Under the pieces are notes generated by a model. It searched no databases, was not told the origin of the DNA, and worked only from the letters and a program-made list of their open reading frames with translations. Positions 7,608-29,421 of a stretch of DNA of 64,000 bases are shown here, one piece after another. The position numbers and the translations under genes were made by a program. Position 1 is the stretch's first letter, and each line of letters opens with the position of its first letter. The DNA is from Paramacrobiotus metropolitanus (lineage: Eukaryota; Tardigrada; Eutardigrada; Parachela; Macrobiotidae), in assembly GCF_019649055.1 (NCBI RefSeq), contig NW_026570290.1, positions 124,001 through 188,000 on the forward strand. Direction: 5' to 3'.

Positions 7608-8938
7608 ATGAAATTATTACTTTTTCTCTTTGTCAGCACTATTCAACGAATGGCTTGCCTTGTGCACGGTAGCAAATCACTAGGTGGGTTACAAGATATA
7701 TAGGTTCAAAAAAAGAAGTGCTTCATTTTAACGCATGTTGCGCTAACAAATGCTTCGCAGTTTGAATTCATGCTGGCGATTCATGCACATTGGATTCGTT
7801 CTTGATGCACACTGATTGTCTATTTTGTTAATTAAATTTCTGAACCGACTGGCTGATGTCCCCATTTTGCATCCCTACATCAAGTGAAATGATTACAGTA
7901 CAATGAAAATTATAACAGTACTATAACTTTTTTGTATATTATCGATGCTTTTGCAGACGAGCATCCGGTACTGGAAACCGAGTGCAATACGCCGCCACCG
8001 GTTATCCAAGCAGCCGCTGTAGAGTTACCCACGTTTTCCTTCCGCACCGACCAGTTTTCACGAGATGAATGCCTGGCGCACGCGGAAATGAGAAAAATGG
8101 AGACTCTATGGTGCAACCCCGTTTTTTGGCCACAGGACTGTGATCGGTCGAAACCGCAAACGTTTATGGCAGTGACCTACGCCTACGTGTCGTGTTATGA
8201 CAGGAGCCGAGTCGAACTGGTATAAACATCACGCGGGGTATAAGTTTAATTAGCCCCTATCGGGCTGTTGACATGACGCTAAGAGAAGGAGACGGTCCCG
8301 CCGATCAACTCCATTCTGACGTAGTCGAACCAATCCGCCACCAGATCATCGACTTACGCGTGTACGTAATGGCACTCTCCCCAAGGTTAACCACAGCCAA
8401 GATTTTCGACGCTGGGATGCTATTGAATCTGTTACTCTTGAAAATTATATCCGGTAGCCGTTTGCAGATTCAGAAGAAGCATTTCTCGCGGATGCCGCAG
8501 ATCCGACGGATAGCGTTCAAGCAGTGCATCATCGCCGTACTGGAACCGTACACCATTACTGACTTGCCTCATTTACAGAGCTTGTCACTGGAAGACGGAG
8601 TCGGTCTGCATCTTCACAGCATATCTGAAAGGAGCGATTGGGCCATAGTACGTTTCAGTGACGAGGAGTACTTGGAGTTACTTCGGAAACTACACAGTGA
8701 CTGTGCGTATGCCTGGTACCGCAATTTTCTCAAGAAATACCCACGTCTTATTGCTTGCAAGGAGACAGGGGAATTGGGGGTTATAGGAAATTACCGATCA
8801 CCAGCTGTTGATGTGGTAAACTTTTCAGGTGTGAGGAGTGTGGACTGCGCGCAAAATTTGACTGATTTTCAGATAAACAATATTGCCGGCCACGAGTATT
8901 CCTACAACACTTCTTGCTATGGCCGTCAATGCGAATGA
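7608..8938 (+). pseudogene. LRS1, secreted leucine-rich protein with one frameshift
   Basis: First member of the LRS array. Exon 1 (7608-7668) encodes a signal peptide starting MKLLLFLFVSTIQRMACLVH. The intron is 7669-7956, and exon 2 starts at 7957 with a phase-1 junction that makes an Asp, as in LRS2. Exon 2 reads through the N-terminal cysteine domain to a stop at 8223-8225. The family sequence resumes in another frame (INITRGISLISP onwards) and runs to the stop at 8936-8938. Alignment with the paralogues puts a one-base length change at about 8217-8225. Everything else, including the leucine-rich segment and the C-terminal CxC cap, is well kept, so the loss is recent or is an assembly error. 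A 34-base GT-AG intron there would also restore the frame but is implausibly short. The tail differs from the others, ending YGRQCE. Confidence 0.8.
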
Positions 8939-9594
8939 GAATTTTCCTTTAACTGTGCATCAGTCCTGTCTGAGGCAATGTCTTTAATGATCAAAATTTA
9001 ACTGAAATGTTTGATGAGTGTTTCGGCAAGTTCCTTTTTTGTTTTAAAATTAGACATCGAAATGTATGCCGCATTAGCCTAGTTCCGCATGGAAAGTTTT
9101 TATGATGCTGAGTAAACCACTTTTGCACGCCGTTTGATAATATTGTTGATCCATACATGTACATGTACCCCGTAATACGAGCATGCATGAATAGGGCTTA
9201 CTGCTTACATTATTTTCTGACAATCATGTCCCAGAAAAGCGCACCACAGCTTATTATGTAGCGTAATTAATGTCGAGAGCACTTTGCCATGAATACGGTA
9301 GATTAAACACCATTCACCGGCTGATATTCTCACGCGATAACCATACGACGAAGTACGAACGATATGGATCTGTCAGCATAAATGGACTGGGGTTTTAAGT
9401 TTGGTTTTCAAGCGCAGTAACTTCTTTGTTGTATGTTCAGTATCGGTAAAACAATATAAACATGTGGACGAAGTATAAACCGTTATTTCAGTCGAAACAT
9501 CATTCAACTCAAACAGCTGTTCCGCACGCCCAGATGGTGGCACGGTTTCTCAGATTCTCCGATTAACTCGAATTGCTGTTACATTAATCACACC
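8939..9594. other. LRS1-LRS2 intergenic unit, also duplicated at 18.6-19.5 kb
   Basis: No gene is seen. The DNA from the end of LRS1 through this spacer has a diverged counterpart after LRS4. Examples are the blocks around 9211-9250 and 9500-9545 against 19095-19135 and 19395-19445. Confidence 0.5.
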
Positions 9595-10717
9595 ATGTTA
9601 CTGATCCTTAAGACCATAACAACAGTCCTTTTGCTTCCAGGCTGCTTTACGCACGGTGGGTCTCAAGCCTCCCATGATAATAAATTCTGCTTTGAAATTT
9701 CCTCTGTATGAAACAATGCACTATACCACATCTGCAGATGAACGGCCGGATCTAGAAATCGACTGTAATCCTGCACCAGCGACCACGACAGCAGCGCCTG
9801 CAGAGCCGACCGCGTTTCCATTTCGGACCGATCTGTTAACGCGAGAAGAATGCCTTGCATATGCACAACTGCATACCCACCGGAATATGTGCAGTCCGGT
9901 TCTCTCACCGCAACAGTGTGAGCCCTCAAAGTATGATCAGTACACGATAACACCACCATCCAGAACTTACATCGATGCCTCCTGTTCATGGGCGAATCGA
10001 ACAGCGCTGACAGAAGTTATGCGGAGTATCAACATTATTAGTCCGAATCGGGCGGCTATCGTAACCTTTGCGGAACAAAACGACACCACCTGTCCGATTC
10101 ATTCGGACGTCATCAATCCAATCCGTAACCAGATTATCGAGTTGTACGTCTTAGGATGCCGCACGACGCGTACCACCGCCAAGATTTATGAAGCTGGAAT
10201 TTTCCCAAATTTGATACTGTATAAGCTCCAGTCCGGGCTGCGCTTGGAGATTCAGAAGAAGCACTTCACACGGATGCCACAGATACGAAGTATTCGACTG
10301 GTGTACTGCACTATCGCTGCGCTAGAGCCGTACACGTTTACCGATCTACCACACTTGCAGAGCTTGGAACTGGAGGGCAACGTGGGCTATCATCTGTACC
10401 GCGTGCACGAAACTCCCGATCGGCGCATCTGGGATCCCGAGATATTCAGCGACGAAGATTTCGAGATGATTCGGAAACTGCACTGTGATTGCTCGTACGC
10501 GTGGTACCGCAACTTTCTAAGAGAGAAGCCGTATTTAACATTCGGCAAGGTCAAAGGAGAAATTGGCGTTATTGGAAACTATGCGACGCCGTTTGTTGAC
10601 GCTTCATTTCTCTCGGGTGCGCTTAGCGTTAATTGTACGCAAAAGTTGACGTACAACAATAGTAACGTCGGAAGCGAGTACTCGTACAATGTACCATGCT
10701 TTAACCTGCGCTGCTGA
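9595..10717 (+). CDS. LRS2, secreted cysteine- and leucine-rich protein (intact)
   Basis: Exon 1 is 9595-9655 (signal peptide MLLILKTITTVLLLPGCFTH), the intron 9656-9737 is 82 bases, and exon 2 is 9738-10717. The phase-1 junction creates Asp, giving DERPDLEIDCN at the mature start. The product is about 346 residues. The N-terminal part has five spaced cysteines (DCN, EEC, CSP, QCE, SCSW). The middle has leucine-rich repeats (FTRMPQIRSI, FTDLPHLQSLELEG). A cap starts LHCDCSYAWYRNFL, and two cysteines lie at the end (VPCFNLRC). This resembles extracellular LRR proteins with an LRRCT-like cap, though the cap is divergent. It is the most diverged intact copy together with LRS8. No reading-frame damage is seen. 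Role unknown; secretion or surface exposure is inferred. Confidence 0.85.
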
Positions 10718-12160
10718 TGAAAAGTGCACCTTGAATTAATGGCAGTCGATTGCCTCAGCCGTGCATGCCATCCGCGGCTTGCAAACCAGCCTGTAATGGT
10801 GTCAATATGTACTGTATTATGCGGTAAATTTCTTGGGTCACCTTGTTCCTGTACGGGTATTAAGCGGTGCAAGTTGCAACAAAGGTGGGATTTCCACTTT
10901 TGAAGTTGAACGTCGACCAGCTGGATAAGGTCATTTCTTTTACTTGTTGCACGTTTATGGGTAGGAGCGCTCATGTGCAGCAACGGTAAAGGGCCGCCTA
11001 ATGACGACAAGGAGTAAAACCTGAGACTGACAAGCGGCATTTTCTGTTTGACAAACGAAACAGCCAGCAACCAACAGGAATGTTACCCGTGGCTGGGCCG
11101 TAGACGATACTGAAAATTAACGGCAATGGCTTCGGTAGTAATCTGTACAAGCCGGTGCTAACTGGCATAAAGTATGGCTGCGAACTGCGACAAAAACTTC
11201 GGAACTACCAGCCTGTGCGCAGTTCGGGTAGCACGGCATCACCAAAAGGCAAGAAAGACTTTGAGAGGGTAGAAAATTCTCTAACAATACCAGTAGTGCC
11301 AAAGGGCGTACCAAACGTAACTTTCCGTGTTTTGTACCTCTCTTCACAGATTCATTCAGCAGTTCATACAGATATTTTTATTAACCACCTTTTATTCAAA
11401 GTAAATTTAAACTAGTCTAACTGCGATTTTGCCGCAGAGCATTTGGCTAAGTATTTTTATTCGCAAGCTTTTCAGAGCGTTTTAAAAACGTTATATTAGC
11501 ACGCTAGGACACCATAAGCATTTTCTATTAAAATACCCTGTTCAAAGCGTTAAGGAAGGAGAGAAGTGACAAACAAAGTTACAAAAGCCAGTTTTCAAAA
11601 TGACCGTGATTAGGGAGCCAAAAGTAATATCAGCTGATTAATTTTTTGTTTCTGTAGTTCTTCGTTGAACCTTCTAATTTTTATTTTCTATAATTATTAG
11701 CTTATGAATTTTTATTTTTTATATTAGCTTAGGAAACAATTCATGTGAATAAAATATAATGAGTTCCATATTTCTTCAAATGGCGTGGGGACATAATAGG
11801 GAAAGTTACTTTTGGGACGCCCTTTGTATGATACAGCGGTAGCTCGTGTTGCTCTCAGTCAGATTACATCACCAGAATGAAACAATAATTTGACTTTCTC
11901 AAGCGATCGGTTTGCGACTGACCGATAAGGATCCTCTGAGTTGAAGATAAAATCAATGTTCAGAAAATGGCGAGTCTCCTTGAATTGGCTCGTTAGTCCT
12001 TACATTATTACATATATATGAAAAAAGGCATACATGCGTAAAGCATAAGGCATTGCTGTAATAATAACTGATACAAACAGAAGATACCCTTTTCACCAGA
12101 GAAATCATAATTATTCCAATTAAAAATTTACGCCGTACGTCCGGTTTCACCTTATTGGTT
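10718..12160. other. Intergenic before LRS3, with shared upstream block
   Basis: No gene is supported; frames on both strands around 10.6-11.4 kb lack start, splice or composition support. At 11895-11928 lies the block TTTCTCAAGCGATCGGTTTG, which recurs upstream of LRS5 and, degraded, upstream of LRS4, LRS6 and LRS7. Confidence 0.45.
11895..11928 (+). promoter_or_regulatory. Conserved upstream block of the LRS genes (LRS3 copy)
   Basis: TTTCTCAAGCGATCGGTTTG followed by GACTGACCGATAAG lies about 266 bases before the LRS3 start. LRS5 has nearly the same block at 20435-20470. It could be a promoter element or simply duplicated DNA that has not yet diverged. Confidence 0.4.
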
Positions 12161-12309
12161 ATGGAGACTTTAAAAATCAGCGCCCTGAAATTACTGCAGG
12201 CATTGCTGATCAACATCATTTTGCTGCCGCCCTGCCTTATGCACAGTAAGCATATTACGTATTTACTCACTCGCCCATAACTTTTAGCACGGTAAATATA
12301 TTCTACCCC

Positions 12310-15300
12310 ACTTATATTCCACTTTTACCAGCTATTTATTGTCTTTTTTTTGTGGTTAATTATTTTGTGGTTAATTATTAATTTTGTGGTAATGTTCGGT
12401 ATTCCTACGGATGAAAGTCCGGGAGTCGCTGCAATGTTCACTGGGCCTTGAACGACACTACTTGGGGGGAACTTTTGTGAACCCCAGGTAATCGGGTATG
12501 TCGTTTCTCGCTGGTCGATGTCATATTTCTATTTTTGTGGAGCTGTTTTTCTGGGCTTTTAACACATTTGTAGCTCTTGGGTCCTGGTGAAATGGCGAAA
12601 GATCAACGATGTCAGTACTGCCAGAACCTGTTCGCCAAAGGCGCAGGGTTCGCCAACCACGTCAAGGCCTGCAGCAAGAAAGTTCATGCCCGACAGCCCT
12701 CGCTTGTTCCCCAGTCCGACTCTGACCAACACCCCCTTCGGTTTCTCCTGTCCGGGACACATTATACCCTCCCGAAGAGAGTGCCAAAAACAGTCCGACG
12801 CTCGTGTGCACAGGCCCTGACCCAACTCCTCCGTAAATGTGTACGTGATAACTCTTCCGCGTCTTGGATAGATTTGCTGCTTTTTGGTTCAAGAGCGCTA
12901 TCTTTACCTGCCACGAAGTCACTCCGAAAGGAATCGCTGCCTTCCATTATTCAGAGGAACCTGACCGATCTATCTCGCCACCATCATCCTCCCCGCACAC
13001 GTCCTAGCGGTGATACAACCCGTAAACGCGAATTGAATGAAGAGCGATTGACGGCTTTGGCCACATCCCTGTTGCAAAACAATAATGTGCGACGGGCTGT
13101 TGGAGTAGTAATGGGTGAAGACGCTCTTGCCCCGATGAATGCGGACACTCTGGAAGCCCTACGCGATAAGCATCCTCCGGAGCCCGAAGACAGTGATTAT
13201 CCTCCGCCGCCTGAGCAGTTACAGAAGCCTCCTTTTGTCACCCCTGCTGAAGTTTTGCAGGCCGTTCTAAGCTTTCCTTCTGGATCTGCTGGTGGTTGCT
13301 CGGACTTACGGCCACAACACCTTAAAGATATGTTGTGTGGGCCTGGAGCGGTGGAAAGTGAACTGTGCTCTGCTTTGACTGATTTTGTTAACCATGTACT
13401 GCACAACGACATCCCCGAAGATATCAGGCCTTTCTTTTTTGGCGCCAATCTAATCCCATTGGCTAAGAAAGACGGAGGTATACGTCCCATCGCCGTCGGA
13501 GAAACCTTCAGACGTTTAGTCTCGAAAATGGTGAGCCAGAGGTGCACGGATAAGATGAAGGAGCTGTGCAACCGAGTCCAGTTTGGTTTTGGGACTAAGG
13601 GCGGAGCCGAGGCCATTATTCACGGGATGCGGGCCTATTTGGAAACTCCCCATACGGAAGCTCGGGTCATTGTTAAACTATATTTTAAAAACGCTTTCAA
13701 TATGTTGAGACGGGACGCACTGTTAAGAGCTGTTCGTGAACATTTCCCCGCATACTACAGCTTTTTTTGGCAGTCCTATCGCTTCAGCAGTCATTTGGTG
13801 TGTGGAGAAGAAGCGTTGTTGTCCGCCCGGGGAGTGCAGCAAGGTGAGTTAGGTGACCCATCTGGCCCGCTTGGATATAGCCTAGCCACGTTACCGTTGT
13901 TCCCTGACTTGGACTGCGAATTGTATTTTGCCTTTCTTGATGATGTTACGCTGGCCGGGACCGTAGAAAAAGTGATGTCAGCCATTAAGCGGATACAGGA
14001 AAAAGCGGCGAAATTGGGTCTGGAGTTGAATTTCAGGAAATGCGAATTCTTTCCAGTCGTAACGAGCGATGCTGAAGAAGCGCATATCCGTAGATCTCTG
14101 CTAAGCTGCTGGCCGGAGATGTTACAACTAAGTGCCGAGAATTTCTCTCTGTTGGGAGCACGGATGACATCTTCTGCATGCGCGGGATTTTTGGCTGGAA
14201 AAACGAAGCAACTCCAAAATTTCGTCCAGCGTCTGAAAAAGCTACCGGCACACTACAGTCTCTTTCTTCTAAAAAACTGCCTCAGCATTCTAAAAGTTTT
14301 ATACGGGTTGCGAACTTCACGTAGTTATGAACACGCGCAACTGTTGAAAGAATATGACGAAATGTTGCGGTTGGGGGTGGAGCAGCTGGTCAACGTAAAA
14401 ATTTCCGAAGCTCAGTGGACGCAGATATCTCTTCCAGTACGGCGTGGGGGTTTGGGAACGCGACGCATAGAGACATTAGCTGTTTGTGCCTATTTGGCAT
14501 CGGTGTACTCTGTGCAACACATCGTTTCCGAACTTTATCAGCCAACTGAGGAGTGTCTGACGAAAACAGCTCAGGAAACCTGGGTACAGCTGACAGAAGG
14601 TGAGATTCCGGCAGAATTCCTTCGAAAGTTTCAGTTTGCATGGGACAGCCCAGTGATTGATCGGGATATTTCCATCCTGATGTCATCCACTGAAGGCAAC
14701 GACCGCGCTAGGGCAGTCTTGCTGGCTGCCTTAAACAAAGATTCGAGAGCGTGGTTAAATGCGTTGCCTGCGCCATGTTTGGGCACCTTCCTAAGGGACG
14801 ACGATGTGAGAATTGGTGTAGCCCTGCGCTTTGGATTACCGGTAGTGGTGGCACACAATTGCATCGCGTGCGGTACACAAGTCGAAACCAATGGTCATCA
14901 CGGGCTATCATGCAATAAATCAACCAAAGGACGATGGGCGCGGCATAAGGAAATGAACAGCATCGCAAAGAATTGTTGCGAAAGCGCTGGTTTTCCTTGT
15001 CAGCTGGAACCGACTGGGCTATCCAGCACAGACGGGAAAAGACCCGACGGGATGACGCTGATACCTGTTCGCCAAGGCAGACCGCTTGTTTGGGATGTAA
15101 CAAGCTGGTGTACTGTTGCAGATTCCCACGTCGCCGCAAGCTCGAAAAATCCGGAAGTGTGTCCCAACTGGCAGAAAATTCCAAGCGCCGGACGTATTCT
15201 TTTTTTGAATACGGTTACCTCTTTTATCCCCTGGTTATTGAGACACTGGGAGTTTTTGGCCCTGCCTTCAGTGAAATGCTGCATTTCATGGGCCGCAAGA

Positions 15301-15536
15301 TTCGGGACATAACGGGCGAAGCGCGTTCTACTGCTTTTCTCAAGCAGCGTTTTAGTTTAGCTGTTGTTAAGGGAAATGCTACGGCTGTTTTGAGTACATT
15401 GCCTTTTAATCCGAGAGAGGATAAGGATTTTGGTTGTTTTTTTAATGTTTAATTTTTAACTATTAAGTAGTGTACCAGCGCTTGCAATTATTGCTATTTG
15501 GGTTGCTATTGCCAATAAAGGTATTTATTCTACCCC
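12310..15536 (+). mobile_element. R2-like non-LTR retrotransposon (LINE) in intron 1 of LRS3
   Basis: The element includes a 5' leader of about 280 bases, one long reading frame, and a 3' end with AATAAA (15514-15519) but no poly-A tail. TATTCTACCCC occurs just before it (12299-12309) and again at its end (15526-15536), so these 11 bases look like a target-site duplication. The 3' end carries repeated TTGCTATT units. The architecture is a zinc finger, reverse transcriptase, CCHC knuckle and restriction-like endonuclease, which is that of R2-group LINEs; I cannot name the clade. Exact ends are uncertain by some tens of bases. Confidence 0.8.
12592..15452 (+). pseudogene. LINE protein: zinc finger, reverse transcriptase, restriction-like endonuclease
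   Basis: From ATG 12592 the frame runs about 906 codons to 15312. It has an N-terminal C-X2-C-X12-H-X3-C finger, then reverse transcriptase with motif C FLDDVTLAG (Asp 450 and 451). The knuckle CIACGTQVETNGHHGLSC is C-X2-C-X8-H-X4-C. The endonuclease core RPDG...LVWDVT is P-D-X15-D. Two lesions are visible. Motif A reads KLYFKNAFN, where relatives have an aspartate for the tyrosine (codon TAT at 13681-13683). The conserved C-terminus (FYPLVIETLG, GRKIRDITGEA) continues in another frame from about 15140-15175 to 15452, so a frameshift separates it from the endonuclease core. The enzyme would be inactive in reverse transcription. Confidence 0.85.
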
Positions 15537-16637
15537 TATTAATATCTATGCTCACCTTGATTTATGTTTCTAGAACAATTTCGCCTGGTTTTTGCTTATA
15601 CGTATGTACTTTATAGTACATTCTTAATAGATGGGCATACGGATCTGGAAACCGATTGCAATATCCCTCCAAACATGTCTCAAACGAATGTTGTGGACCC
15701 AATAGCATTTCCGTTTCGAAGCGATCTGTTGACACGAGAGGAATGCCTGCTTTATGCCAACTTGAGTCATAACGGTGCAATCTGCAGTCCGGTTTTCAGC
15801 GTCCAAGAATGCGAGAAGTCATCGAACGATGAACATCTGTTGACACCACCCTCTCGAACATACATCGATATTAGATGTTCTTGGGAGAATCGTACTCTTC
15901 TGAGCGATACTACGAAGAATATCCATTTAATCAGCCCAACACGAGCTATCATCATCAAATTGAAGGAGCGCAACGATTCTGTCGATCCAGTCCATCCGGA
16001 GGTCATTAGCCCGATTCGAAACCAGCTCATCGAGTTCCGCGTCAGAAGTCCGCACAACATTCATCAGTGCCAAGATATACGACACCGGGATGCTGCCGAA
16101 TTTAATACTGCTCAGGATTGAATCTGGGTTGCGTTTAGAGATCCAAAAGAAACATTTCTCGAGGATGCCCCACATACGAAGCATTACATTCGCGGACTGC
16201 ACTATTGCAGCGCTGGAGCCGTACACTTTCACTGATTTACAACAGTTGCAGAGCTTATCGCTCGAAGACCGCGTCGGTTACAATCTATATCAAATCGAGC
16301 ACTATGATGCCTGGGCGCAACCTGACTTCTATCCGGACACACTAACTCACTAAGTAACGCGAGTTTGGAAGTTTTCCGACAGTTGCACTGTGATTGCTCC
16401 TACGCCTGGTATCGCAATTTCCTCAAGCGGAAACCCGATCTAATTTCCAGCAAGAGACAGGGCGAAGTTGCGAAAATAGGTAACTATATGACACCTTCTG
16501 TTAATATGGTTTTTACAATTTCGGCAGCTGTGCTCCGAGTTGATTACGCGCAAAACCTGACTTTCAGCAATGTGGGTCGTAATATGGGTGGTAGCCAGTA
16601 TTCTTATAACACATCTTGCTATAATTTGAAGCGTTGA

Positions 16638-17446: not shown

Positions 17447-18738
17447 ATGAAATTACTGTTGACATTTTTCATCAGCGTCATCGTGCTCCAAGCCTTTCCT
17501 GCGAATGGTAAATGTATATTCTCATTCCTTATGCTGCAAATCAAAATAATTTTGCTGGAATTAAATAATTACGATCAAGTGATTGCTTTATGCACCAAGA
17601 TTAAAGAGCAGTAGCGTCACTGATCAATCCGATATTTCTTTTAACGTTTTTCTAGCGATATTAATTTCAAATTATAGTCCAGTCTTCCTGCTCGACTTCC
17701 CTACATAATGCAGGGATGCAAGTGGACCTGGTAACCGACTGTAATACACCACAAACGTCCCACAACCGACTGCTCTGGAGCCGATAACATTTCAATTTCA
17801 GAAAGATTCGTTAACACGAGGTGAATGTCTGATATGTGCCACCTTGAGACAAAATGGCACCATCCGCAGTCCGGTTTTCGCCCACGAATGTGAGCGTTCA
17901 TCGGATAACCAGTATCTACTGAAACCACTCTCTAGAATATATATCGATGTCAGATGTTCATGGGAGCATCGAACCCTTTTAACTGCGTAATAGTACACAG
18001 AAGATTCGCCTAATCAGCCGAACACGCGCTGCCATCATCAGCAGCAGGAGCGCAGCGATTGTCTCGATCCCGTCCACCCGGAGGTCATCAACCCAGTTCA
18101 AAACCAGCTCATCCAACTCATGCTCGTCCAGCTCATGTCTCAGAAGTGCGTACAACGCAAATCTGCGCAAAGATGTGCGACATTGGAATGCTGTCAAGCC
18201 TGATATTTCTCGGAATTCAGTCTGCGCTGGGCTTAGAGATCCAGAAGAAACATTTTTCGCGGATGCCACAAATACGCAACAATGGAGCGTCACATTCGCG
18301 CACTGCACTATTGCAGCGTTGGGGTCGTACATTTTCAGTGACTTACCACACGTGCAGAGCTTATCACTGGAAGATGGTTGCAGCTCAGATCTGTCTCTGA
18401 TCGACGACTTTCCCAATGCGTCTAAAAAGCGCCGCCGGCTCTATCTGTACATGTTCAGTGATAAAGGTCGAGAAATGATCCGGAAGCCGCATGGTGAGTG
18501 CTCGTATGCATGATACCGTTAGTTTCTCAAGAAAAACCCAGGTCTTATTGCACGTAAGGAGAGAGGAGAAATTGACGTTACAGGAAGTTACCAATCACCC
18601 CTTGTTTATACAGGGGTGCATTTCGGGTGTGCTGAGTGTGGATTGCGCGCAAAATTTTGACTGCCACTGTATTTCAGATAAACAATATTGCCGGCCACGA
18701 GTATTCGTAGGACACTTCTTGCTATGGCCTACAATGCC
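17447..18738 (+). pseudogene. LRS4 pseudogene, heavily decayed
   Basis: The leader exon (17447-17507) is still well formed and nearly the same as in LRS7, with donor GTAAATG. Exon 2 starts at 17714. It carries at least five disruptions, including an early frameshift after the NTP segment, stops around 17990 and 18510, and further indels. Recognisable islands include HFSRMPQIR and LPHVQSLSLEDG. From about 18600 on, the sequence matches the end of LRS1 (KQYCRPRVF arises from a frame-shifted copy of the LRS1 tail) rather than that of LRS7. The copy is therefore a mosaic, by gene conversion or unequal crossing-over. Confidence 0.85.
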
Positions 18739-19494: not shown

Positions 19495-19572
19495 TTCTTA
19501 TTCTGTACATAAAAACATTCTTATTCTGTACATACATTCGGTTCTTATTCTGTACATTCTTATTCTGTACAT
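19495..19572. repeat. Four copies of TTCTTATTCTGTACAT
   Basis: Exact 16-base copies start at 19495, 19518, 19542 and 19557, with spacers of 7, 8 and no bases. Confidence 0.8.
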
Positions 19573-20434
19573 ATAAACGAGTCGAATATATTACTCGTAC
19601 GAGTATAGTATAACTCGCAGAACATACTGGAAAAGCGTCTGCACTCTATGGACCGATACCATTCCGGCATTCTGTGCAGTATGCATTAGTTAATCATGCT
19701 TTTACGTGGAAGGTTAAGTAACCAGGTACGTTTCTGAAATCTCTGAAAAAAACGAATGTTATGCTCAGGAAACGGACGGAGTCCAAATCACAGACCACTT
19801 CACGTTTGCTTCACAGAAACTTTTTTAAAATGTTTAAACCACATGTTTTTTAGAATGTTTAAACCACCAGCACAGTTGAACAAATGATTTTAACGCCAAT
19901 ATGTTTAAGTCATCGTGTGGTACAGTATCATAAACAGTACAAGAATTTCTTTGCGCACGAAAATTACGACAGGTGTTAGTTCACAAACGGGTACCATGTA
20001 CCAGATAACCAGATAATTTAATTCTGGGCAGCGCGTTGAACACCACCACGAACCTTTGGCAGCACTGCACTAGTGCCGGTGACTTCGGTAATAGTCTGTG
20101 CGATCCAAGTGCCAGCTAACCTGCAGGATGACTGCGGCATAGCTCTTGCGTCTGAAAATCCTGAATGGTGAATGACAGTACACAGAAGTGACAGCCACGG
20201 GTGCGGTTGGTGTCGCCATTTACAGTCAAACATCGAACCCACTAACGTCTTCTTTGACTAAACGCACGTTATTCCGAGATTAATTATCCTGAAACGGATC
20301 TGCATGTTAAAAATCTACGGAACTTGCACTGCTGTCTCCCATCCAACATGGCTGCAGCAAAAAGCTGCTCGTTTGACAACGGCAGTTCGCGTTGTTGTCA
20401 ATGTGAATAAAATTAATCACCGAAACTTAATTGA

Positions 20435-20470
20435 TTTTCTCAAGCGATCGGTTTGCGATTGATCGATAAG
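20435..20470 (+). promoter_or_regulatory. Conserved upstream block of the LRS genes (LRS5 copy)
   Basis: TTTTCTCAAGCGATCGGTTT then GCGATTGATCGATAAG lies about 278 bases before the LRS5 ATG. It is followed, as at LRS3, by a second shared block containing TCCTTGAA.TGGCTC.TTAG. Compare the LRS3 copy at 11895. Confidence 0.4.
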
Positions 20471-20712
20471 AACCCCTCGCGAAGTTTAGATCATATCAGT
20501 GTTCACAATATGGCTTGTCTCCTTGAACTGGCTCCTTAGTCCTTAAGTATAAAACATCAGGCATACGAGCTTCGGTTGCTGTATCGGTAAACAATAGTAA
20601 CTGATACAAACACGTACCTTTCATCAGTGAAATAATAATTATTTCACTAAAAACTTATTCTATACTTCCGGTCCCATCTTATCTTGTTATACATATTTCC
20701 AATAGCAGCACC

Positions 20713-21843
20713 ATGAAATTACTGCAGACGTTGCTAATAAACATTATTCTGTTCCCGGCCTGTCTTATGCACGGTAAATATATTCTATGCTCATCTTTAA
20801 CTATTTCCCTGAAAGAGTAATTGATAGCTTATCCCGTCTTAACAGATGGTCATACGGATCTGGAAACCGATTGCAACACCTTTCCAAACATCGCTCAAAC
20901 GACTGCCGTGGAACCGATAGCGTTTCCGTTTCGGACTGATTTGTTGACACGAGAAGAATGCCTGCTCTATGCCGAACTGAGCCAGAATGGCGCTATTTGT
21001 AGTCCAGTTTTTGATGTCGAAGAATGCGAGAAGACATCGAATGACGAGTTCTTGTTGACACCACCCTCTCGGTCATACATCGATGTAAGATGCTCATGGG
21101 AAAATCGTACCATTCTGAGCAATATTACAAAGAACATCCATTTGATCAGTCCAACACGAGCGGCTATCATCATGTTGAAGGAGCGCAGCGATTCTTTCGA
21201 TCCAGTCCACGCGGAGGTCATTGGACCGATTCGAAAACAGCTCGTCGAATTACGCGTCCCGGAAATCCGCACCACAATTATCAGTGCAAAGATATACGAC
21301 ATTGGGATGCTACCGAATCTAATACTGCTGGGAATTGGATCTGGACTGCGCTTAGAGATCCAAAAGAAACATTTCTCGCGGATGCCACAGATACGCAGCA
21401 TTACATTCTCGGGCTGCACTATTGCAGCGCTCGAGCCGTACACTTTCACTGATTTACCGCACTTGCAGAGCTTATCGCTCGAAGACGGCGTCGGTTATAA
21501 TCTATACCAAATCGAGAAATACGATGCCGCGATGCGCCGCGTCCATTCGGGCATGCTGAGTGACGAGGATTTAGAGATGTTCCGGAAACTGCACTGTGAT
21601 TGTTCCTACGCTTGGTATCGCAATTTTCTCAAGCAGAAACCCGATCTGATTTCCGATAAGAGAAAAGGAGAAGTTGCGATTGTAGGAAACTATATGACAC
21701 CATCTGTTGACATGATTTTTGCATTTTTGGCTGCGGTGCTCAGAGTTGACTGCGCGCAAAATCTAACTTATACCAATGTTGAGCGTACCATGGGTGGTAG
21801 CCAGTATTCCTACAACACATCTTGCTATAATTTACAGTGCTGA
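20713..21843 (+). CDS. LRS5, secreted cysteine- and leucine-rich protein (intact)
   Basis: Exon 1 is 20713-20773 (MKLLQTLLINIILFPACLMH, a clear signal peptide), the intron is 72 bases, and exon 2 is 20846-21843. The junction makes Asp and the mature protein starts DGHTDLETDCN. The product is about 352 residues. Its order is an N-terminal five-cysteine domain (mature 1-110), a bridging segment with PIRKQLVELRV, leucine-rich repeats (LPNLILLGIGSGLRLEIQ, FSRMPQIRSI, LPHLQSLSLEDGVGYN), the CDC cap and the end NTSCYNLQC. Several N-glycosylation sequons (ENRT, SNIT, QNLT) fit a secreted protein. Its close relatives are LRS3, LRS6 and LRS7. No damage is seen. The ligand and role are unknown. Confidence 0.87.
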
Positions 21844-23526
21844 GAAAAATTAGAATTTCGAAAATTAGAATTTCGGTGTTTTGTCAGGCATCTTTATCCC
21901 ACATTAAATTTTATCTTTGCAGACCAGAATGAGGTATCTCCGACCGTGGTTACCGTGGTATGAGAACGTGGTATCTCCGACTTTGACAGTGATCTGATTT
22001 TGCCGAAATCGTTTAATTAAAAACGTTTAAGAACAAAATCTCGTTAACGGGAATCTTAAATCGCTTTTAAAGATTCTTGCGGCAAAAAGATTATCAAGTA
22101 CTAGAAAAACGCACCAAATGATTCAATGGAAGGTCAGTCTACCATTCCGGCATTCTATACACTGTTCATCTGTAATGCAGAGCCTCGAATTTTGTGGCTA
22201 AGTACCCCCAAGATAAATTTCTGAATCTCTGAAATGCTTCATGTAGTGGTCAGGATATTGATGAAGTCGAAATATTAGACCGCCTCTCGTTTGGTGGACA
22301 GCGATGGTTTTAGAAAGTTCCTTTTATTATGGCACACGTCAGCAACCGGTTGTTGAGGCACAAATCATTTGTGCCAGTGCGCCGATACATTTAAATTATG
22401 TTACGTCGGCATATGTAAATTCAGTCATTGGGCTGTAGAATATTAATACTATAATACGATATACAACCTTTGCGTGCGAACGTTCCGGTGATGTACGTTC
22501 TGGAAATTGGTGCCATGTACCGGATAATCTAATTCTGGGCAATCGTGTAGTCACTAAATGAACAAGCATCAGTATTACGTCCGGGGAAACACAGTGTCCA
22601 GACCCTTTACTGCACACATGACTGTTACCATTCTCAAAAAATACACCACAGCCTCACCTGTGGCACGTTTCGCACCAAAGGAAAAAACTGGGTCGTTTTT
22701 TTTCTTCCTGTAGGCACGGTAGACATCTGCATACAGGCTGTAGACACCATATAGTCATGCCGGTAGTCACCTGATGTCTGCAGCAGTGACACCAGTCGGG
22801 AACAAAAACTTGACAGTGTCTACATGGTGTCTAGTTCTACAGGTTGTCTACAGATGTCAGATGACTACAGTGACTACAAGAAGAAAAAACACGTTTTTGG
22901 TTTTTTCTTTGGTACGAAACGTTCCAAGTTTAATGCATGTACACCGCACCAATCGATGGAAAGTTAGAGTTGGCAACGCCTGGGGCCAGCACTTTGCATC
23001 TACTGAAAAACAACTCAAAATGGTGCATTTCGGAAAATATAGCGTCATGCATTTTTGTTAATTACGATGGCGTCATAACAATGTATGCCGTTAAAGTCCT
23101 ACGGAAGCTGGACTACTTTTCTTCCCATTCGAGTATTCGACCATCCTGCAGGATGATTGACGCTGCCAGTTTGATAGCGGTAGTTCGTATTTAACTGGTA
23201 AAAGATTAAAAAATGCTCTGATTTTCCCAAGTGACAACCTTACGATCGAACGATATGAATTTCCCCAAAGCTGGAGATAATATCTCAGTTGGCCATGTCG
23301 TATAAGGAAAGACGGCTTCTAGCCTTCTAGGTCCTTATACCGTATGTATTGTCCTGTATATTATAATAATTATTATAAGGCACACTTTAAGCACTGTAGC
23401 ACATACAGAGTAATTGCTAGTGACTCTTCCACTCCCTGGTACTGAAGTAGTGCACCACTCCGAAAAGTGCTCCGCATATCCGGACCCTCGCCTCATTCTT
23501 TTACCGAGACGTGTATTAGTTTCGCC
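21844..23526. other. Intergenic, LRS5 to LRS6
   Basis: No supported gene. It holds DNA duplicated from before LRS5 (22.13-22.56 kb), an inverted-repeat element at 22662-22928, and a degraded upstream block near 23221-23280 (GATATGAATTTC, GGAGATAATATCTC). Confidence 0.45.
22662..22928. mobile_element. Short inverted-repeat (foldback/MITE-like) element
   Basis: The left arm starts GGCACGTTTCGCACCAAAGG and the right arm, reversed, GGAACGTTTCGTACCAAAG. Both arms continue through a T-rich block, a TTCTTC.TGTAG block and repeated GTGTCTAC/GTAGACA words. The arms are about 75 bases with several mismatches. There is no coding capacity, and the target duplication is not resolved. Confidence 0.55.
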
Positions 23527-24686
23527 ATGAAATCGCTGTTGGCAGTGTTAGTAAGCATCCTTTTGCTGCCAGCCTGCCTTATGCACGGTAAACAAACAAT
23601 ATGGTTACTGCTTACAGAAGGTTATTTGCCGAAGACTCCGGTAGCAGTACCTGTGCAGTTATCGTCAGGATATGTTCTTCTTTAATAGGTGGGAATATGG
23701 ATCTGGAAACAGACTGTAACATAGCTCCAACGGACACCCACATGACGGCATTGGACCCCCCAGCGCTTTCATTTCGGACTGATCGCTTGACTCGAGAAGA
23801 ATGTCTGACCTATGTTAACTTAAAACAAGATGGCGTCACCTGCAGTCCCATTTTTGGCGTCGACGACTGCAAGCCAAAATCGAATGACAAGTATCTGCTA
23901 AAGCCACTTTCGAGAACTTACATTGACGTCCGATGTTCATGAGAGAATCGCACCGTTTTAACGAATATTACAAAGAATATCAACCTAATAAGCCCAACCC
24001 GAGCTGTCATCATGACTTTAAAAGAGCGAAACGATTCTTTCGATCCAGTCCACCATGCAGTCATCAACCCGATTCGCAACCAACTTATTGAACTCTCCGT
24101 TTCAGAAGTTGTCACGCCGTTTATTTACAAAAAGATATACGACACTGGGATACTACCAAATGTGGTGCTACTCAAAATTCAGTCCGGCCTGGGCTTGGAG
24201 AGCCAGAAGAAACATTTCTCGCGGATGCCAAAAATACACAGCATAACATTTTCGCACTGCACTATTGCTTCGCTGGAGCCGTACACTTTCACCGATTTAC
24301 CGCTTTTGCAGAGCTTGTCGCTTGAAGACGGCGTTGGTTATGATCTGTACCGAATAGCGGAATATGAACGTTCGTTGCGCCTTCTCACTCCGGACATGTT
24401 CAGTGACGAGGATTTGGAAATGTTCCGGAAATTGCACTGCGATTGCCAGTACGCTTGGTATCGCAATTTCCTGAAGCACAAGCCCGAGCTAATTTCCGGC
24501 AAGAGACAAGGGGAAGTTGCGATTGTAGGGAACTATATGACACCATTTGTCGACATGCTGTCCGCGATTTCGGCTGCGGTTCTCAGAATTGATTGCGCGG
24601 CAAATCTGACTTACAGTAATGTTGAAAATGTCGAAAACGGGAGTCAATATTCGTACAATACAACTTGTTATAATTTGCAGTGCTAA
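23527..24686 (+). pseudogene. LRS6, otherwise intact copy with one nonsense codon
   Basis: Exon 1 is 23527-23587 (MKSLLAVLVSILLLPACLMH), the intron is 101 bases, and exon 2 is 23689-24686, the same length as in LRS5. The mature start is GGNMDLETDCN. The frame is interrupted only once: TGA at 23940-23942 replaces the TGG of the invariant CSWENRT motif. Reading continues in the same frame with no other disruption through the leucine-rich repeats, the CDCQYAWYRNFL cap and the end NTTCYNLQC. AATAAA is at 24747-24752. This is a very young null allele or a polymorphism. Nothing suggests selenocysteine, since the family has Trp here. Confidence 0.85.
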
Positions 24687-25687
24687 TAAGCAAGAGAATT
24701 AATTTTAAAAATCCGGTTTTGCTTGAAAAATGATTTTTTCGTCGCAAATAAAATGTAATAACTGAACACAAGTGACACAGCGATGTGAATGCCGTTTTTT
24801 TTGCTCAGTCTTCAGCACTGCATCTGAATGGTATCAGAGTGTTACAATGAAAAGATGACAATCCTATAGCTCTTGCAACGGATTCATTGCTATTATAAGC
24901 TTGACTGCTGTCTACAATTACAGCTGTTGTAATTTAATCTGTACCGGTTCGCGTTAAAATGTTGAGGGCGATACTATTCCATGACGATATTAATTGCCCG
25001 GAAAGTACAGACAGAACAAGTGTTCTGGACCTTGAAAGTAATTAAGTGGTGCAAACTGTATTACCATTTTTCAACGACAGTGCAAACTCGTTAAATACTG
25101 TACATAGTACATAGTACATACTGTGTTGTGTATGCAGTATGCGAACCAGAACAAGCTTCTATTTACCGCTGCTTTTATTAAGAAATTTTTTCATTATTTA
25201 AGCAGTAACTGTCCATGTAGCGATCTCCCGATACGTGCACAATGAGACGAAGTTGTTCTAAAATCTTTTCTTTGCGATAACACTGCAGCGTAGTTGTTGT
25301 TGATGTTGATCAGGATAAAATAAATAAATAAAGTAAGTAGCGGAAATGAAAATTGACAGTATGTAAGTAGATTTTCTCAAGCGATATGAGCGATGGCATG
25401 GAACGATATGAATTTCTAGCAAGGAGAAGATAATCTCCATGTATACTCGAGAGCCATCTTTTGGCTTGCTTTATTGATAGGATTTCGTAGTTAATAGGTA
25501 TTACATTCTTATATCATAGCCTTACTTGCATTTTAAACATACTAGGACAAGTATATTTTGCGTAAATAGTAAAATAACATACAACTACTAATGCCATAAT
25601 TTTTCATAAAACAACCAATTCGCATTGACTGTGTATCCGTTCTCAGTTTGTTTTACGAGTATCATCGAGATTTCCGTCAGCAACACC
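24687..25687. other. Intergenic, LRS6 to LRS7
   Basis: No gene. It contains the LRS6 poly-A signal and an upstream block at about 25372-25440 (TTTTCTCAAGCGAT, GATATGAATTTC, GGAGAAGATAATCTCC) shared in part with LRS4 and LRS6. Confidence 0.45.
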
Positions 25688-27022
25688 ATGAAATTACTGC
25701 TGATATTTTCCATCAGCATCATCGTGCTCCAAGCCTTTCCTGCAAAGGGTAAATGTGTAAAAGTATCTTCATTCCTTAGGCTAAGCTACATGATGACTTT
25801 GTGGAGATAAAATTAGAACGAGAGTGACTGCATAATGTTAAAAGGCTGAAGTGCGATAGCCGCCCCTAATCGAAAGCCGATATAGATTCCTTTTAACACT
25901 CTTAAGCGTTATTAATTTCACATAAAGTGCCAGGCGTCGTACTCTGTTTTCCTACATACATAAAGTGAAACCTTTATTCATAAAGTCTGTAGTTAAACGA
26001 GTGTCGTTATATGTGCAGGGGGGCAAGTGGATCTGGAAACCGACTGCAACACCGTCCCGAACGTCACACAACCGACTGCTCTGGAGCCGATAACGTTTTC
26101 GTTTCGAAACGATCTGTTAACACGAGGCGAATGTCTTATGTATGCCAACTTGAGCCAAAATGGCAAAATATGCAGTCCGATTTTCGGCGTCCACGAATGC
26201 GAGGGTTCATCGGATGACCAGTATCTGCTAAAACCACTCTCTAGAACTTACATCGATGTCAGATGTTCATGGGAGAATCGAACGCTTCTGACCAATATCA
26301 CAAAGAATATCCATCTAATCAGCCCCACACGAGCGGTTATCATCAAGCTGAAAGAGCGCAACGATTCTCTCGATCCGGTCCACCTTGAGGTCATCAATCC
26401 GATTCGGAACCAGCTCATCCAACTGCATGTCTCAGAAGTGCGTACAACGCTAATTTGCGCAAAGATATACGACATTGGGGTGCTGCCAAATCTGATATTT
26501 CTCGGGATTCAGTCTGGATTGGGCTTAGAGATCCAGAAGAAACATTTCTCGCGGATGCCTCAGATACGCAGCATCATATTCGCGCACTGCACTATTGCAG
26601 CGCTGGAGCCGTACACTTTTACTGATTTACCACACTTGCAGAGCCTATCGCTCGAAGACGGCGCCGCTTCCGATCTGTCTCTGCTCGACGACCATCCCGA
26701 TCCGGCCACAAAGCGCCGTCTCTATCCGTACATGTTCAGTGAAGACGGTTTAGAAAGTATCCGGAAGTTGCATTGTGATTGCTCGTACGCTTGGTATCGC
26801 AATTTCCTCAAACAGAAGCCCAGTCTAATCTTCGGCAGGGGACAGGGTGAAATTGCTATGGTGGGAAACTACATGACGCCATTCATTAACATGATGGACG
26901 CGTTTTCGGCTGCCGTGCTCAAAATAGACTGTGCGCAGAACATTACTTATCACAATGTGCAGAGAAACCTTCGCGGTAGTCACTATTCCTACAACACATC
27001 TTGTTATGACTTACAGTGCTGA
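25688..27022 (+). CDS. LRS7, secreted cysteine- and leucine-rich protein (intact)
   Basis: Exon 1 is 25688-25748 (MKLLLIFSISIIVLQAFPAK), the intron is 270 bases, and exon 2 is 26019-27022. The phase-1 junction gives GGQVDLETDCN. The product is about 354 residues. It has the full family plan: the N-terminal cysteines, LPNLIFLGIQSGLGLEIQKK, FSRMPQIRSIIFAHCTIAAL, LPHLQSLSLEDG, LHCDCSYAWYRNFLKQKP and NTSCYDLQC. Compared with LRS5, the variable loop after LSLEDG is reworked (ASDLSLLDDHPDPATKRRL). This is the most variable stretch in the family and a candidate contact surface. It is the likely source or sister of pseudogene LRS4, which has almost the same leader and the same DLSL loop. Confidence 0.87.
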
Positions 27023-27891
27023 TGCGAAACAAAATTCTAAAAGCGCGTTCATGTCTAGAATAATCGTCGGTAAAGCAAATGAAATTTAATGACTGCAGTT
27101 TGCGATGGTAAATTTCAGTTCATCGGTAATGTTTGATAACGGACGATGAATGTCTTGAATACCGAGTTATTATTAACAGTTGTTGACACTTCATTGCCTT
27201 TTTATGTTTATATATCACAATTACAAGGATTCTAGCAAAGGCTTTTTAAGTTTTACATCTGTCGGTTCATTTCAGAATTTCAAGGGTAATGACTTTTCTA
27301 GTCCACTTACCTATTTTAATTCAATAAAAGTTTGTTATTTATCGGCAACCGCAATAAGCTTTCGGCACATGGCGGTATCGAAACATTATATCTATTTGAC
27401 CAGTCTCCATTGCCGTTTTTAATAACTCTGCCTGGCAACATTTGACTGATGTACCGTTCGACTAACACCGTGATACAGATACTTTTATATCTAATTCTGT
27501 TTGATTTTCCCAGTCATGCTACGATCACGGGAAGTTGGGCAGAACCTTATCTTTATTTCCGGATGGGCATATATGAACCTACTATACCTGAATATTACTA
27601 GTGCCTTCTACAAGCATTGCGACAGGATAATCGTTAAAAACGCTACAGACACCTCGATGGAACGCTTGATTTTCTCATACGATAAGGATGCAATAAACGA
27701 TACAGCTGGAAATGTAAAAGATGTGTATTAATGTTAACGCAGTGCCAGTATTTTACGGCCGTTTGGTACGGCTCTTATCTTGATTGCTATACACTCACTA
27801 CTAAATCTCTATACCTTTTATAACAGGTCCCTGGAACTTCCGGTCCCAGCTTTTTACTAGCTTATTACTCCCGTTTCTGTCTTACAACACA
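27023..27891. other. Intergenic, LRS7 to LRS8
   Basis: No supported gene. A 76-codon plus-strand frame (27501-27731) is open but matches nothing I recognise and lies outside the LRS pattern. Confidence 0.4.
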
Positions 27892-29421
27892 ATGAAGTTA
27901 CTGCGCGCAGTATGGGTGTCCATGGTGCTATTTGTTCTTCCATCTGGTTTTTTGCAAGGTATTTTAATGAACAAACGGTGTATGTGGGGTGTTTCTAAAG
28001 CGTGGTCACCACGGTCGTGGTCGTGGTCGCTGTGGGCGTGGTCGGGGGGGGTGTTATAATTTTTGAAAAGAGTTATGTTAGTTAAGTGGAATAAAAAAGG
28101 GTGCGAGGGAATAACTGTAAGCATAATCATGAAACTTTCAGTCTTCTCTAATTATTCGACAGTAGCGTATGAACTAACAGTGCAATAGTTAAATACTGAA
28201 CAGTGAACAGTGAATCGGAGACTTCCGCCCACCCTCGACCACAACCACATTATCCCACACTCGACCACTAACGACCACGACCACTACCCCCCACGACCAC
28301 GCCCACAGCGACCACGACCACGACCGTGGTGACCACGTTTTAGAAACACCCGTATATGTGCACGCATTGCTGGACATAATTTCGTATACCGCCTTTTCTG
28401 TGTAAAAATTACTTAGTACTGAGTGATGCTTTGTGCAGACGCACCTACTGATTTGGAAATCGATTGCAACACCCCGCCAACGGCCACACAGATCTCAGCG
28501 GTGCAGCTGGATCCCAATCCATTTCGGACGGATCTGTTGACAAGAGAAGAATGCCTGGGATACGTTAGCCTGCACGAAAGCCGGAGCATATGCAGCCCTG
28601 TGCAGTCGCGAAAGGACTGTGAACCTTCGAGCAATGATCAGTATACGATAACGCCAATATCACGAACCTACATCGAGGTGTTGTGCTCATGGGAAAATCG
28701 CACCTCGTTCGCCGAAATCACGCAGAGTGTCAGCACAATTAGTCAACGTCGAGCTGTCACCATAAGACTCAAGGAACGCAACGACTCAACCGATCCGATT
28801 CACTCTGATGTCGTTAATCCCATCCGTGAGCAGATCATCGAGCTGTCCATCTTAGAATGCCGTACAACGCGCACAACCGCCAAGGTTTATGACGCCGGGA
28901 TGCTCCCAAACGTGATAAGGTTTACGATGCAATCCGGGTTGCGTTTGGAGATTCAGAAGAAGGATTTCTCGCGGATGCCAAAAGTACGAATGATCAGCTT
29001 GTCATCCTGTACCGTTGCCGTCCTGGAACCGTACACTTTTACCGACCTACCGCACCTGCAGAGCTTGTCGCTGGAGGACGGCGTTGGTTTCCATCTGCGT
29101 CGCTTGCAGATGCATCCAAACCGGAGCGAATGGGATCCCGAGACTTTCGGTGAAGATGATTTAGCGATGGTCTGGAAACTACACTGCGACTGCTCGTATG
29201 CGTGGTATCGCAATTTTCTCAAGAAAATACCGAGCCTTATTACCGGCAAGAATATCGGAGAAATTGGCAGTATTGGCAACTATAAGACACCTTATGTGGG
29301 CGGGGTGTCGTCGTTATCTGGCCTGCTTAGCGTAAACTGCACACACAAGCTGACTCCCGATAATAGTGATATTGGCAGCAAGTATTCCTACAATGTACCT
29401 TGCTATAACATACAGTGCTGA
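27892..29421 (+). CDS. LRS8, secreted cysteine- and leucine-rich protein (intact)
   Basis: Exon 1 is 27892-27958 (leader MKLLRAVWVSMVLFVLPSGF, two codons longer than in the others), the intron is 480 bases, and exon 2 is 28439-29421. The junction makes Asp, giving DAPTDLEIDCN. The product is about 349 residues. It shares features with LRS2 (LEIDCN, ECRTTRTTAK, SYNVPCYNIQC), so LRS2 and LRS8 form an older branch at the two ends of the array. All cysteines, the leucine-rich segment (FSRMPKVRMISLSSCTVAVL, LPHLQSLSLEDGVGFH) and the CDC cap are present. A 365-base inverted-repeat element fills most of intron 1 without touching the splice sites. AATAAA is at 29651-29656. Confidence 0.87.
27987..28351. 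mobile_element. MITE with terminal inverted repeats of about 60 bases in LRS8 intron 1
   Basis: The left arm GGGTGTTTCTAAAGCGTGGT at 27987 is matched by its inverse ending at 28351. The arms continue through GGTCGTGG repeats and differ at few positions. Nine flanking bases are nearly repeated: GTGTATGTG (27978-27986) and GTATATGTG (28352-28360). Long TIRs and a 9-base duplication are typical of Mutator-like elements, so this is a non-autonomous candidate of that group. It has no coding capacity. Confidence 0.7.

What the first reader, a model, noticed from the sequence alone, without database searches (positions are those of the whole stretch)
7608..29421. Tandem array of eight secreted LRS genes in all stages of birth and death
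Eight copies share one design: a signal-peptide exon of 61 or 67 bases, a phase-1 intron and one large exon. Four are intact, two have a single lesion and two are decayed. The rapid turnover of a secreted family suggests selection for variety, as in defence or surface recognition; that is inference.
Basis: partly seen in the sequence, partly recalled or inferred. Interest (0 to 1): 0.7.

Follow-up and report, generated by a model that had tools for sequence, protein, structure and literature searches.

The report
Secreted LRR proteins related to astacins
An animal genome, probably a tardigrade's, carries a large family of small secreted leucine-rich-repeat proteins, and a related domain is fused behind the catalytic domain of many astacin-type proteases, a pairing for which no description was found in the papers searched.

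Summary
The array is real: eight tandem copies, four intact (LRS2, 5, 7, 8), LRS6 with one stop, LRS1 with a frame break and a lost cysteine, LRS3 and LRS4 decayed. 'Rapid turnover, selection for variety' is mostly not borne out: intact copies are old (dS 0.86-2.4) and constrained (dN/dS 0.13-0.21). The loop after LSLEDG is fastest (0.59), not above 1. Site models show no positive selection in this clade and a marginal signal in one other. The array is a small part of a genome-wide family: 138 merged loci, broken ones included. Each protein is a signal peptide plus one cysteine-capped LRR domain, as a rule without membrane anchor. New: a homologous module lies behind astacin (M12A) metalloprotease domains. 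Of 145 scored places of that module, 72 have an astacin match within 4 kb upstream on the same strand, 40 within 100 bases; of 119 places found with LRS5, none has. Module exon boundaries at two loci, like the LRS intron, read as phase 1, as in exon shuffling. Best reading: LRS are catalysis-free secreted relatives of an astacin ancillary domain, acting as extracellular binders. Function is inferred only.

The parts
7608..8938 (+). LRS1: signal exon 7608-7668, large exon 7957-8938; broken (frame break about 8168-8225; invariant Cys lost)
9595..10717 (+). LRS2: signal exon 9595-9655, large exon 9738-10717; intact
12161..16637 (+). LRS3: exon 1 from 12161 (85 bases; usual ATG is CTG), large exon from 15631; two frame breaks (about 16044 and 16311-16338); intron holds a retrotransposon
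12574..15312 (+). 912-codon reverse-transcriptase ORF (non-LTR type by recalled resemblance) in the LRS3 intron
   Evidence: PF00078 E=4e-14; multi-copy in the genome
17447..18740 (+). LRS4: signal exon 17447-17507 (or -17513), large exon from 17714, end uncertain; decayed, several frame breaks and stops
20713..21843 (+). LRS5: signal exon 20713-20773, large exon 20846-21843; intact; reference copy
21487..21585 (+). LRS5 variable loop after LSLEDG (residues 211-243 counted from DLETDC), pooled dN/dS 0.59
21586..21690 (+). LRS5 LRRCT-like core HCDCSYAWYRNFL (residues 244-278), pooled dN/dS 0.05
23527..24686 (+). LRS6: signal exon 23527-23587, large exon 23689-24686; single in-frame TGA at 23940-23942, otherwise constrained
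25688..27022 (+). LRS7: signal exon 25688-25748 (or -25754), large exon 26019-27022; intact
27892..29421 (+). LRS8: signal exon 27892-27958, large exon 28439-29421; intact

Best explanation
Each LRS gene encodes a secreted, soluble, cysteine-rich domain of about 330 residues: a short N-terminal tail, an LRRNT-like cysteine part, about four or five leucine-rich repeats with one variable loop, and an LRRCT-like cap. It is the stand-alone form of an LRR module that, in the same genome, sits in one to three copies behind the catalytic domain of astacin (M12A) metalloproteases. Where module exons could be read their boundaries look like phase 1, so joining one phase-1 signal-peptide exon to one module exon gives an LRS gene; the sampled stand-alone copies separate from the sampled astacin modules on one branch, as a single origin would give. 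The family then grew by old tandem duplications with ordinary pseudogenisation, under purifying selection. Most likely mechanism (inferred): the LRR domain binds an extracellular partner, most likely one of those that the module binds in the proteases (substrate, matrix or inhibitor), so LRS proteins act as non-catalytic regulators or decoys of an astacin repertoire, with the variable loop tuning the partner. Shown: signal-peptide-like exon, LRR homology, homology to the astacin module, phase agreement at the loci read, constraint. Inferred: binding, regulation, direction of the evolution.
For: Family census: merged in 46 (138 loci, 13 clusters of 3 or more holding 81). LRR and LRRCT: hmmsearch of A2 against PDB, TLR13 E=6.9e-19, LRRC15 1e-15, with the Cys/Trp cap aligned to TLR13's; LRR_8 in 32 of 40 members at E<=0.01. 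Astacin link: same open frame in L049 and L051 and in L053 and L054; 72 of 145 module places have an astacin match upstream within 4 kb, 40 within 100 bases; controls: 0 of 145 downstream within 1.5 kb, and 0 of 119 LRS5-found places upstream within 4 kb. Homology over profile columns 27-276, hhalign probability 99.8, E=1.2e-27. Phases. One branch, 100/100. Constraint. Signal exon: 37 of 40 open copies have a hydrophobic ATG-led exon with a phase-1 donor within 900 bases upstream, against 5 of 40 on the reverse complement, 4.65 of 40 in shuffled stretches, and 10 and 18 of 40 for phases 0 and 2; LRS2, missed by that cut, has one; none for L035 and L039.
Against: No expression, binding or structure data. 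The only AlphaFold model (window copies and pieces alone) has mean pLDDT 47.6, so the repeat count rests on sequence. The tree is unrooted, the astacin rows are only 10, and three are on long branches that the tool warns about, so the direction (astacin first or stand-alone first) and the single origin are not settled. Exon phases of modules were read at two loci without transcripts; in L049, L051, L053 and L054 astacin and module share one frame without an intron. Seventy-three of the 145 module places have no listed astacin within 4 kb. Whether stand-alone clusters lie near astacin genes was not tested; one astacin-module gene (L053) lies within the C131 cluster. LRR_8 for LRS5 is below Pfam's curated cut-off (23.4 against 27 bits).
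Confidence: 0.45

Rival explanations
1. Secreted recognition proteins of defence: LRS copies bind microbial or parasite surfaces, like short soluble Toll-type or LRIM/APL1-type LRR proteins (recalled), and the loop varies under selection for variety.
For: Large tandem family, secreted, LRR and LRRCT nearest to Toll-like receptors among solved structures; the loop is the fastest region in the window clade; 2dlnL 6.05, P=0.049 for a class with omega 3.8 at 1.7% of sites in the C81/C37 clade.
Against: dN/dS 0.13-0.21 between intact window copies, no pair of 780 above 1; no positive-selection class in the window clade; the marginal test is one of two; in the second clade the loop hardly exceeds the N-terminal parts. 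dS is high, so the test has little power.
Confidence: 0.2
2. Extracellular matrix, cuticle or egg-shell constituents: LRS proteins are structural LRR proteins laid down with, and trimmed by, the astacins.
For: Secreted, cysteine-rich, multi-copy, strongly constrained; in ecdysozoans astacins act in moulting and hatching (recalled).
Against: Pfam shows LRRs and no matrix domain in the 40 members at E<=0.01; no localisation data.
Confidence: 0.2
3. Digestive or salivary secretion: astacin-module proteases and LRS proteins are co-secreted in feeding; the LRR module holds food proteins.
For: 164 astacin matches, some of them pieces of one gene, make a very large astacin set; large astacin expansions in predatory arthropods are known (recalled).
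Against: No tissue data; stand-alone copies have no catalytic domain.
Confidence: 0.12
4. The LRS copies are relics with no function, duplicated passively.
For: Four of eight window copies are broken.
Against: Constraint in every comparison with dS<2 (69 pairs, maximum 0.40); 15 invariant columns over 40 copies; even LRS6 shows 0.15-0.27. The 40 were chosen for being open, which favours constraint.
Confidence: 0.03

Closest known systems
Ectodomains of Toll-like receptors (TLR13, TLR3) and other extracellular LRR proteins (LRRC15, ALS, LRRC32, Slit)
   Same: Repeats of the 24-residue LRR type and an LRRCT-like cap with CxC and a conserved Trp.
   Different: Only about 4-5 repeats, family-specific N-terminal part (FRxDxLTxEEC) and C-tail; mostly no membrane span, no TIR match.
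Astacin metalloproteases (M12A) with ancillary domains (tolloid, meprin, nematode NAS; domain lists recalled)
   Same: In this genome an LRS-like module takes the place of the usual ancillary domains behind the astacin catalytic domain.
   Different: Known astacins carry EGF, CUB, MAM, MATH or TSP domains (recalled); an LRR module in that place was not found in the papers searched (listings only). Stand-alone LRS genes have no catalytic domain.
Lamprey variable lymphocyte receptors (recalled)
   Same: Short secreted LRR with caps and a variable loop near the C-terminal cap.
   Different: Variety here is in germ-line copies, with no sign of somatic assembly, and the loop shows no excess of amino-acid change.
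Tardigrade Toll receptors (PMC7056985, start of abstract and passages)
   Same: LRR with cysteine clusters in tardigrades.
   Different: Complete ones carry membrane and TIR domains; LRS copies do not.

Membership tests
Extracellular LRR superfamily | Tandem LxxLxLxx repeats | tested here: met
   LRR_8 in 32 of 40 members at E<=0.01; PDB hits over about residues 150-224. LRS5 alone stays under Pfam's curated cut-off.
Extracellular LRR superfamily | Cysteine caps (LRRNT, LRRCT) | tested here: met
   H-C-x-C and W invariant in 40 of 40 and aligned to the TLR13 cap. The N-cap is by sequence pattern only, and no Pfam cap model was among the matches.
Toll/TLR receptors | Membrane span and TIR domain | tested here: not met
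   No 19-residue stretch above 1.6 in 38 of 40 mature parts (LRS7 and L045 are borderline); a Cys lies within the last 8 residues in 39 of 40; no TIR match.
Astacin M12A peptidases | Catalytic domain PF01400 | tested here: not met
   0 of 119 LRS5-found places have a listed astacin match upstream within 4 kb; no Pfam astacin match in the 40 members.
Ancillary module of the astacin-LRR proteins of this genome | Sequence homology over most of the module | tested here: met
   hhalign 99.8%, E=1.2e-27, profile columns 27-276 of 330; BLASTP E=4e-17 with L049 over residues 117-260.
Ancillary module of the astacin-LRR proteins of this genome | Phase-1 exon boundaries | tested here: met
   L052 and L055 module exons read as phase 1 by splice consensus, no transcripts; stand-alone intron phase 1. 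Only two module loci; in others astacin and module share one frame.
Rapidly diversifying immune family | Positive selection in the binding surface | tested here: inconclusive
   None in the window clade, marginal in a second clade, low power through saturation.
Lamprey VLR | Somatic assembly | not testable with these tools
   No lymphocyte or transcript data; complete germ-line genes make it unlikely.

The most novel reading that the evidence does not exclude
A protease-and-decoy system made by exon shuffling: a large repertoire of astacin-LRR proteases (at least 72 linked module places) and a comparable or larger set of secreted, catalysis-free copies of the same LRR module that compete for, or guide, the proteases' partners. 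A possible intermediate exists: the astacin-module gene inside the stand-alone cluster on C131 (L053) reads HLIMH where the catalytic HExxH is expected, a predicted dead protease.
Probability: 0.22. Interest if true: 0.75.

Novelty: new variant of a known kind. Interest (0 to 1): 0.5.

Why it matters
If right, a protease family gained an LRR recognition module not described in the papers searched, and that module exists free as a large secreted family of the animal. It turns an anonymous tandem array into a testable question: do non-catalytic copies control the proteases that carry the same domain? It would also give annotators a domain to look for in other tardigrades.

Tried and rejected
Positive selection in the loop: tested by region and by site models of my own writing (M0, M1a, M2a, and for the window clade M8a and M8); not supported in the window clade, marginal in one other. 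In one search M8 ended slightly below M8a, an optimiser shortfall, so I rest on M1a/M2a.

Structure: AlphaFold on nine window sequences or pieces gave pLDDT 47.6; no fold search was run on so poor a model.

Origin outside animals: no relative in the prokaryote genome collection or in IMG/VR; the scans used one and two peptide patterns, so this is weak.

C6-C328 as an extra disulfide of the stand-alone form: both present in 34 of 40, both absent in 3, one absent in 3. The three double losses are relatives and one trimmed row may mislead, so I make no claim.

Species: the genome size (169.8 Mb) fits Paramacrobiotus metropolitanus (170 Mbp, PMC11191345, passages only). This is a lead, not a test. 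That paper's main text holds no word beginning 'leucine', 'astacin' or 'proteas'.

Full report
WHAT IS THERE. The window is G000:C70:124001-188000 of a 169.8 Mb assembly in 533 contigs. The eight-copy array of the finding is confirmed, all on the + strand. Every copy has a short signal-peptide exon, an intron that reads as phase 1 and one large exon. Exon 1 is 61 bases in LRS1, 2, 5, 6, 61 or 67 in LRS4 and 7, 67 in LRS8; in LRS3 the usual ATG is CTG and the nearest in-frame ATG makes the exon 85 bases. LRS2, 5, 7 and 8 are open. LRS6 has one TGA (23940-23942). LRS1 has a frame break and also lacks a cysteine that is invariant in 40 open copies. LRS3 has two frame breaks and a 912-codon reverse-transcriptase ORF in its intron. 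LRS4 is broken several times. A ninth, open copy lies 53 kb beyond LRS8 on the other strand (L009, C70:206174-207151).

THE FAMILY. Four searches of the own genome with single members, each scoring only 122-124 of 501-511 candidates, give 149 places as I listed them, or 138 loci after merging, broken and partial ones included; 13 clusters of three or more hold 81, ten pairs hold 20 and 37 are single. C143 and C366 share places of equal score and may be copies of one region. Nine of the 138 (read by eye) reappear in the astacin-module list, and six (C36 twice, C58, C173, C195, C238; by eye) have an astacin match close upstream, so these belong to the module group and not to the stand-alone one. 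I read 40 full-length open large exons: the 4 of the window and 36 others from 40 fetched stretches. The 40 share 15 invariant columns, among them five cysteines. The two-exon design is family-wide: 37 of 40 show a hydrophobic ATG-led exon with a phase-1 donor within 900 bases upstream, against 5 of 40 on the reverse complement, 4.65 of 40 in shuffled stretches and 10 and 18 of 40 in phases 0 and 2. LRS2 has one below that hydropathy cut; L035 and L039 show none; for the second L021 gene and L028 the candidates look doubtful.

ANATOMY. About residues 150-224 match LRRs and 246-262 match the LRRCT of TLR13; LRRC15, ALS, LRRC32 and Slit follow. LRR_8 matches 32 of 40 members at E<=0.01, although LRS5 alone is under the curated cut-off. 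By sequence I read: N-tail with FRxDxLTxEEC; an LRRNT-like part (C48, C57, C79); about four or five repeats from 101 to 243; a variable loop in the last repeat (211-243); an LRRCT-like cap (HCDCxxAWxRNFL) and a cysteine tail. 38 of 40 have no membrane-like stretch by a simple hydropathy cut. The model from window copies alone is poor (pLDDT 47.6), so repeat numbers are not structurally confirmed.

SELECTION AND AGE. Between the four open window copies dS is 0.86-2.4 and dN/dS 0.13-0.21; with L009 added (five copies, ten pairs) dN is 0.165-0.366, dS 0.77-2.4 and dN/dS 0.13-0.25; over all 780 pairs of the 40, 69 have dS<2 with median 0.27 and maximum 0.40, none has dN>dS. By region, pooled over ten pairs: loop 0.59, variable C part 0.38, N-tail 0.29, LRRNT-like 0.21, LRRs 0.17, C end 0.09, LRRCT core 0.05. 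A second clade (15 of 36 pairs with dS<1.6) gives loop 0.41, N-tail 0.37, LRRNT-like 0.36, variable C part 0.32, C end 0.28, LRRs 0.19, LRRCT core 0.12, so there the loop hardly stands out. Site models: M2a equals M1a in the window clade; in the C81/C37 clade 2dlnL=6.05, P=0.049, which does not survive correction for two tests. LRS6, despite its stop, shows 0.15-0.27 against its relatives, so it broke recently or the stop is an assembly or allelic matter. So this is an old, constrained family with ordinary loss, not a fast one. High dS limits the power for sites.

THE ASTACIN LINK. The most distant hits had long open frames. Three were fetched: in L049 and L051 an astacin domain (PF01400, E=8e-30 and 1e-30) is followed in the same frame by an LRS-like domain, two in L049; L050 is the module part of a third, whose astacin match lies 40 bases upstream. 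L051 ends in a membrane-like stretch and a short tail. The genome gives 164 astacin matches, some of them pieces of one gene. The L051 module as query finds 145 scored places (of 507 candidates). Of these, 72 have a listed astacin match upstream on the same strand within 4 kb, 56 within 1.5 kb and 40 within 100 bases; none of the 145 has one downstream within 1.5 kb; none of 119 places found with LRS5 has one upstream within 4 kb. The other 73 of 145 are undecided, since only 150 astacin matches were listed. L052 holds an astacin exon and two module exons, L054 an astacin domain and three modules in one frame, L053 an astacin and a module in one frame. Stand-alone profile against the L051 module: probability 99.8, E=1.2e-27 over profile columns 27-276.

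HOW IT AROSE. In L052 the astacin exon appears to end in phase 1, the first module exon to start and end in phase 1 and the next to start in phase 1; in L055 a module exon shows a phase-1 donor at the same residue (264) and phase-1 acceptor candidates. These are readings by splice consensus at two loci, without transcripts. Stand-alone genes use the same phase after the signal exon. This is the exon-shuffling pattern. On a tree of 40 stand-alone domains and 10 modules the two groups part on one branch (100/100), so one origin is enough; the tree is unrooted, three module rows are long, and the sample is partial, so direction and single origin stay open.

HOW IT MAY WORK. Established here: a signal-peptide-like exon, LRR with caps, relation to the astacin module, constraint. 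Inferred: LRR domains of this kind bind proteins or glycans; a module kept behind a protease domain most simply guides substrates or partners; a free copy would bind the same and so regulate or decoy. One observation fits an intermediate: L053, inside the stand-alone cluster of C131, reads HLIMH at the catalytic HExxH, one of five astacins where that stretch could be read; L049, L051, L052 and L054 keep HExxH.

LITERATURE. No description of an astacin-LRR protein or of this family was found in searches (listings with starts of abstracts only; one search listed 15 of 53). Three papers were opened, for passages only: PMC5531438, whose table has a leucine-rich-repeat family with 19 in its first column among those shared by tardigrades and arthropods, whose identity with LRS I could not test; PMC7056985, on tardigrade Toll receptors; PMC11191345. 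Most subscription-journal papers and all bioRxiv preprints are missing from the library, so absence in print is not shown.

VERDICT. Observation confirmed with corrections; interpretation partly supported; the main result is the tie between a large secreted LRR family and a large astacin repertoire.

Noticed in passing
L053 (G000:C131:69000-71700), ORF from 1129: An astacin-module gene within the C131 stand-alone LRS cluster reads HLIMH where HExxH is expected: predicted to be catalytically dead.
   Followed up: partly
L051 (G000:C36:431700-433700), - strand: An astacin-LRR protein with a C-terminal membrane-like stretch and short tail; C36:428-521 kb holds a tandem cluster of astacin-LRR places.
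   Followed up: partly
window 6728-7231 and 30371-30886, + strand: Two related small proteins (35% over 89 residues) flank the LRS array on both sides; no Pfam match above cut-off.
   Followed up: partly
window 12574-15312: Reverse-transcriptase ORF in the LRS3 intron; multi-copy, 50 places at E<=1e-60 (50 scored of 2108 candidates), many open; besides itself identities up to 93% over part of the ORF.
   Followed up: partly
window about 27988-28352: The LRS8 intron holds a long inverted repeat (GTTTCTAAA-GCGTGGTCACCACGG... and its complement), like a short terminal-inverted-repeat element; read by eye.
   Followed up: no
window 36626-63209, both strands: A second tandem family follows: several pairs of ORFs that look like MATH and BTB parts of SPOP-like proteins (recalled resemblance; not scanned).
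   Followed up: no
L018/L019 (C158:216358-217317 and 221764-222723): The youngest LRS pair in the sample of 40: dN 0.011, dS 0.073, so duplication has gone on until recently.
   Followed up: no
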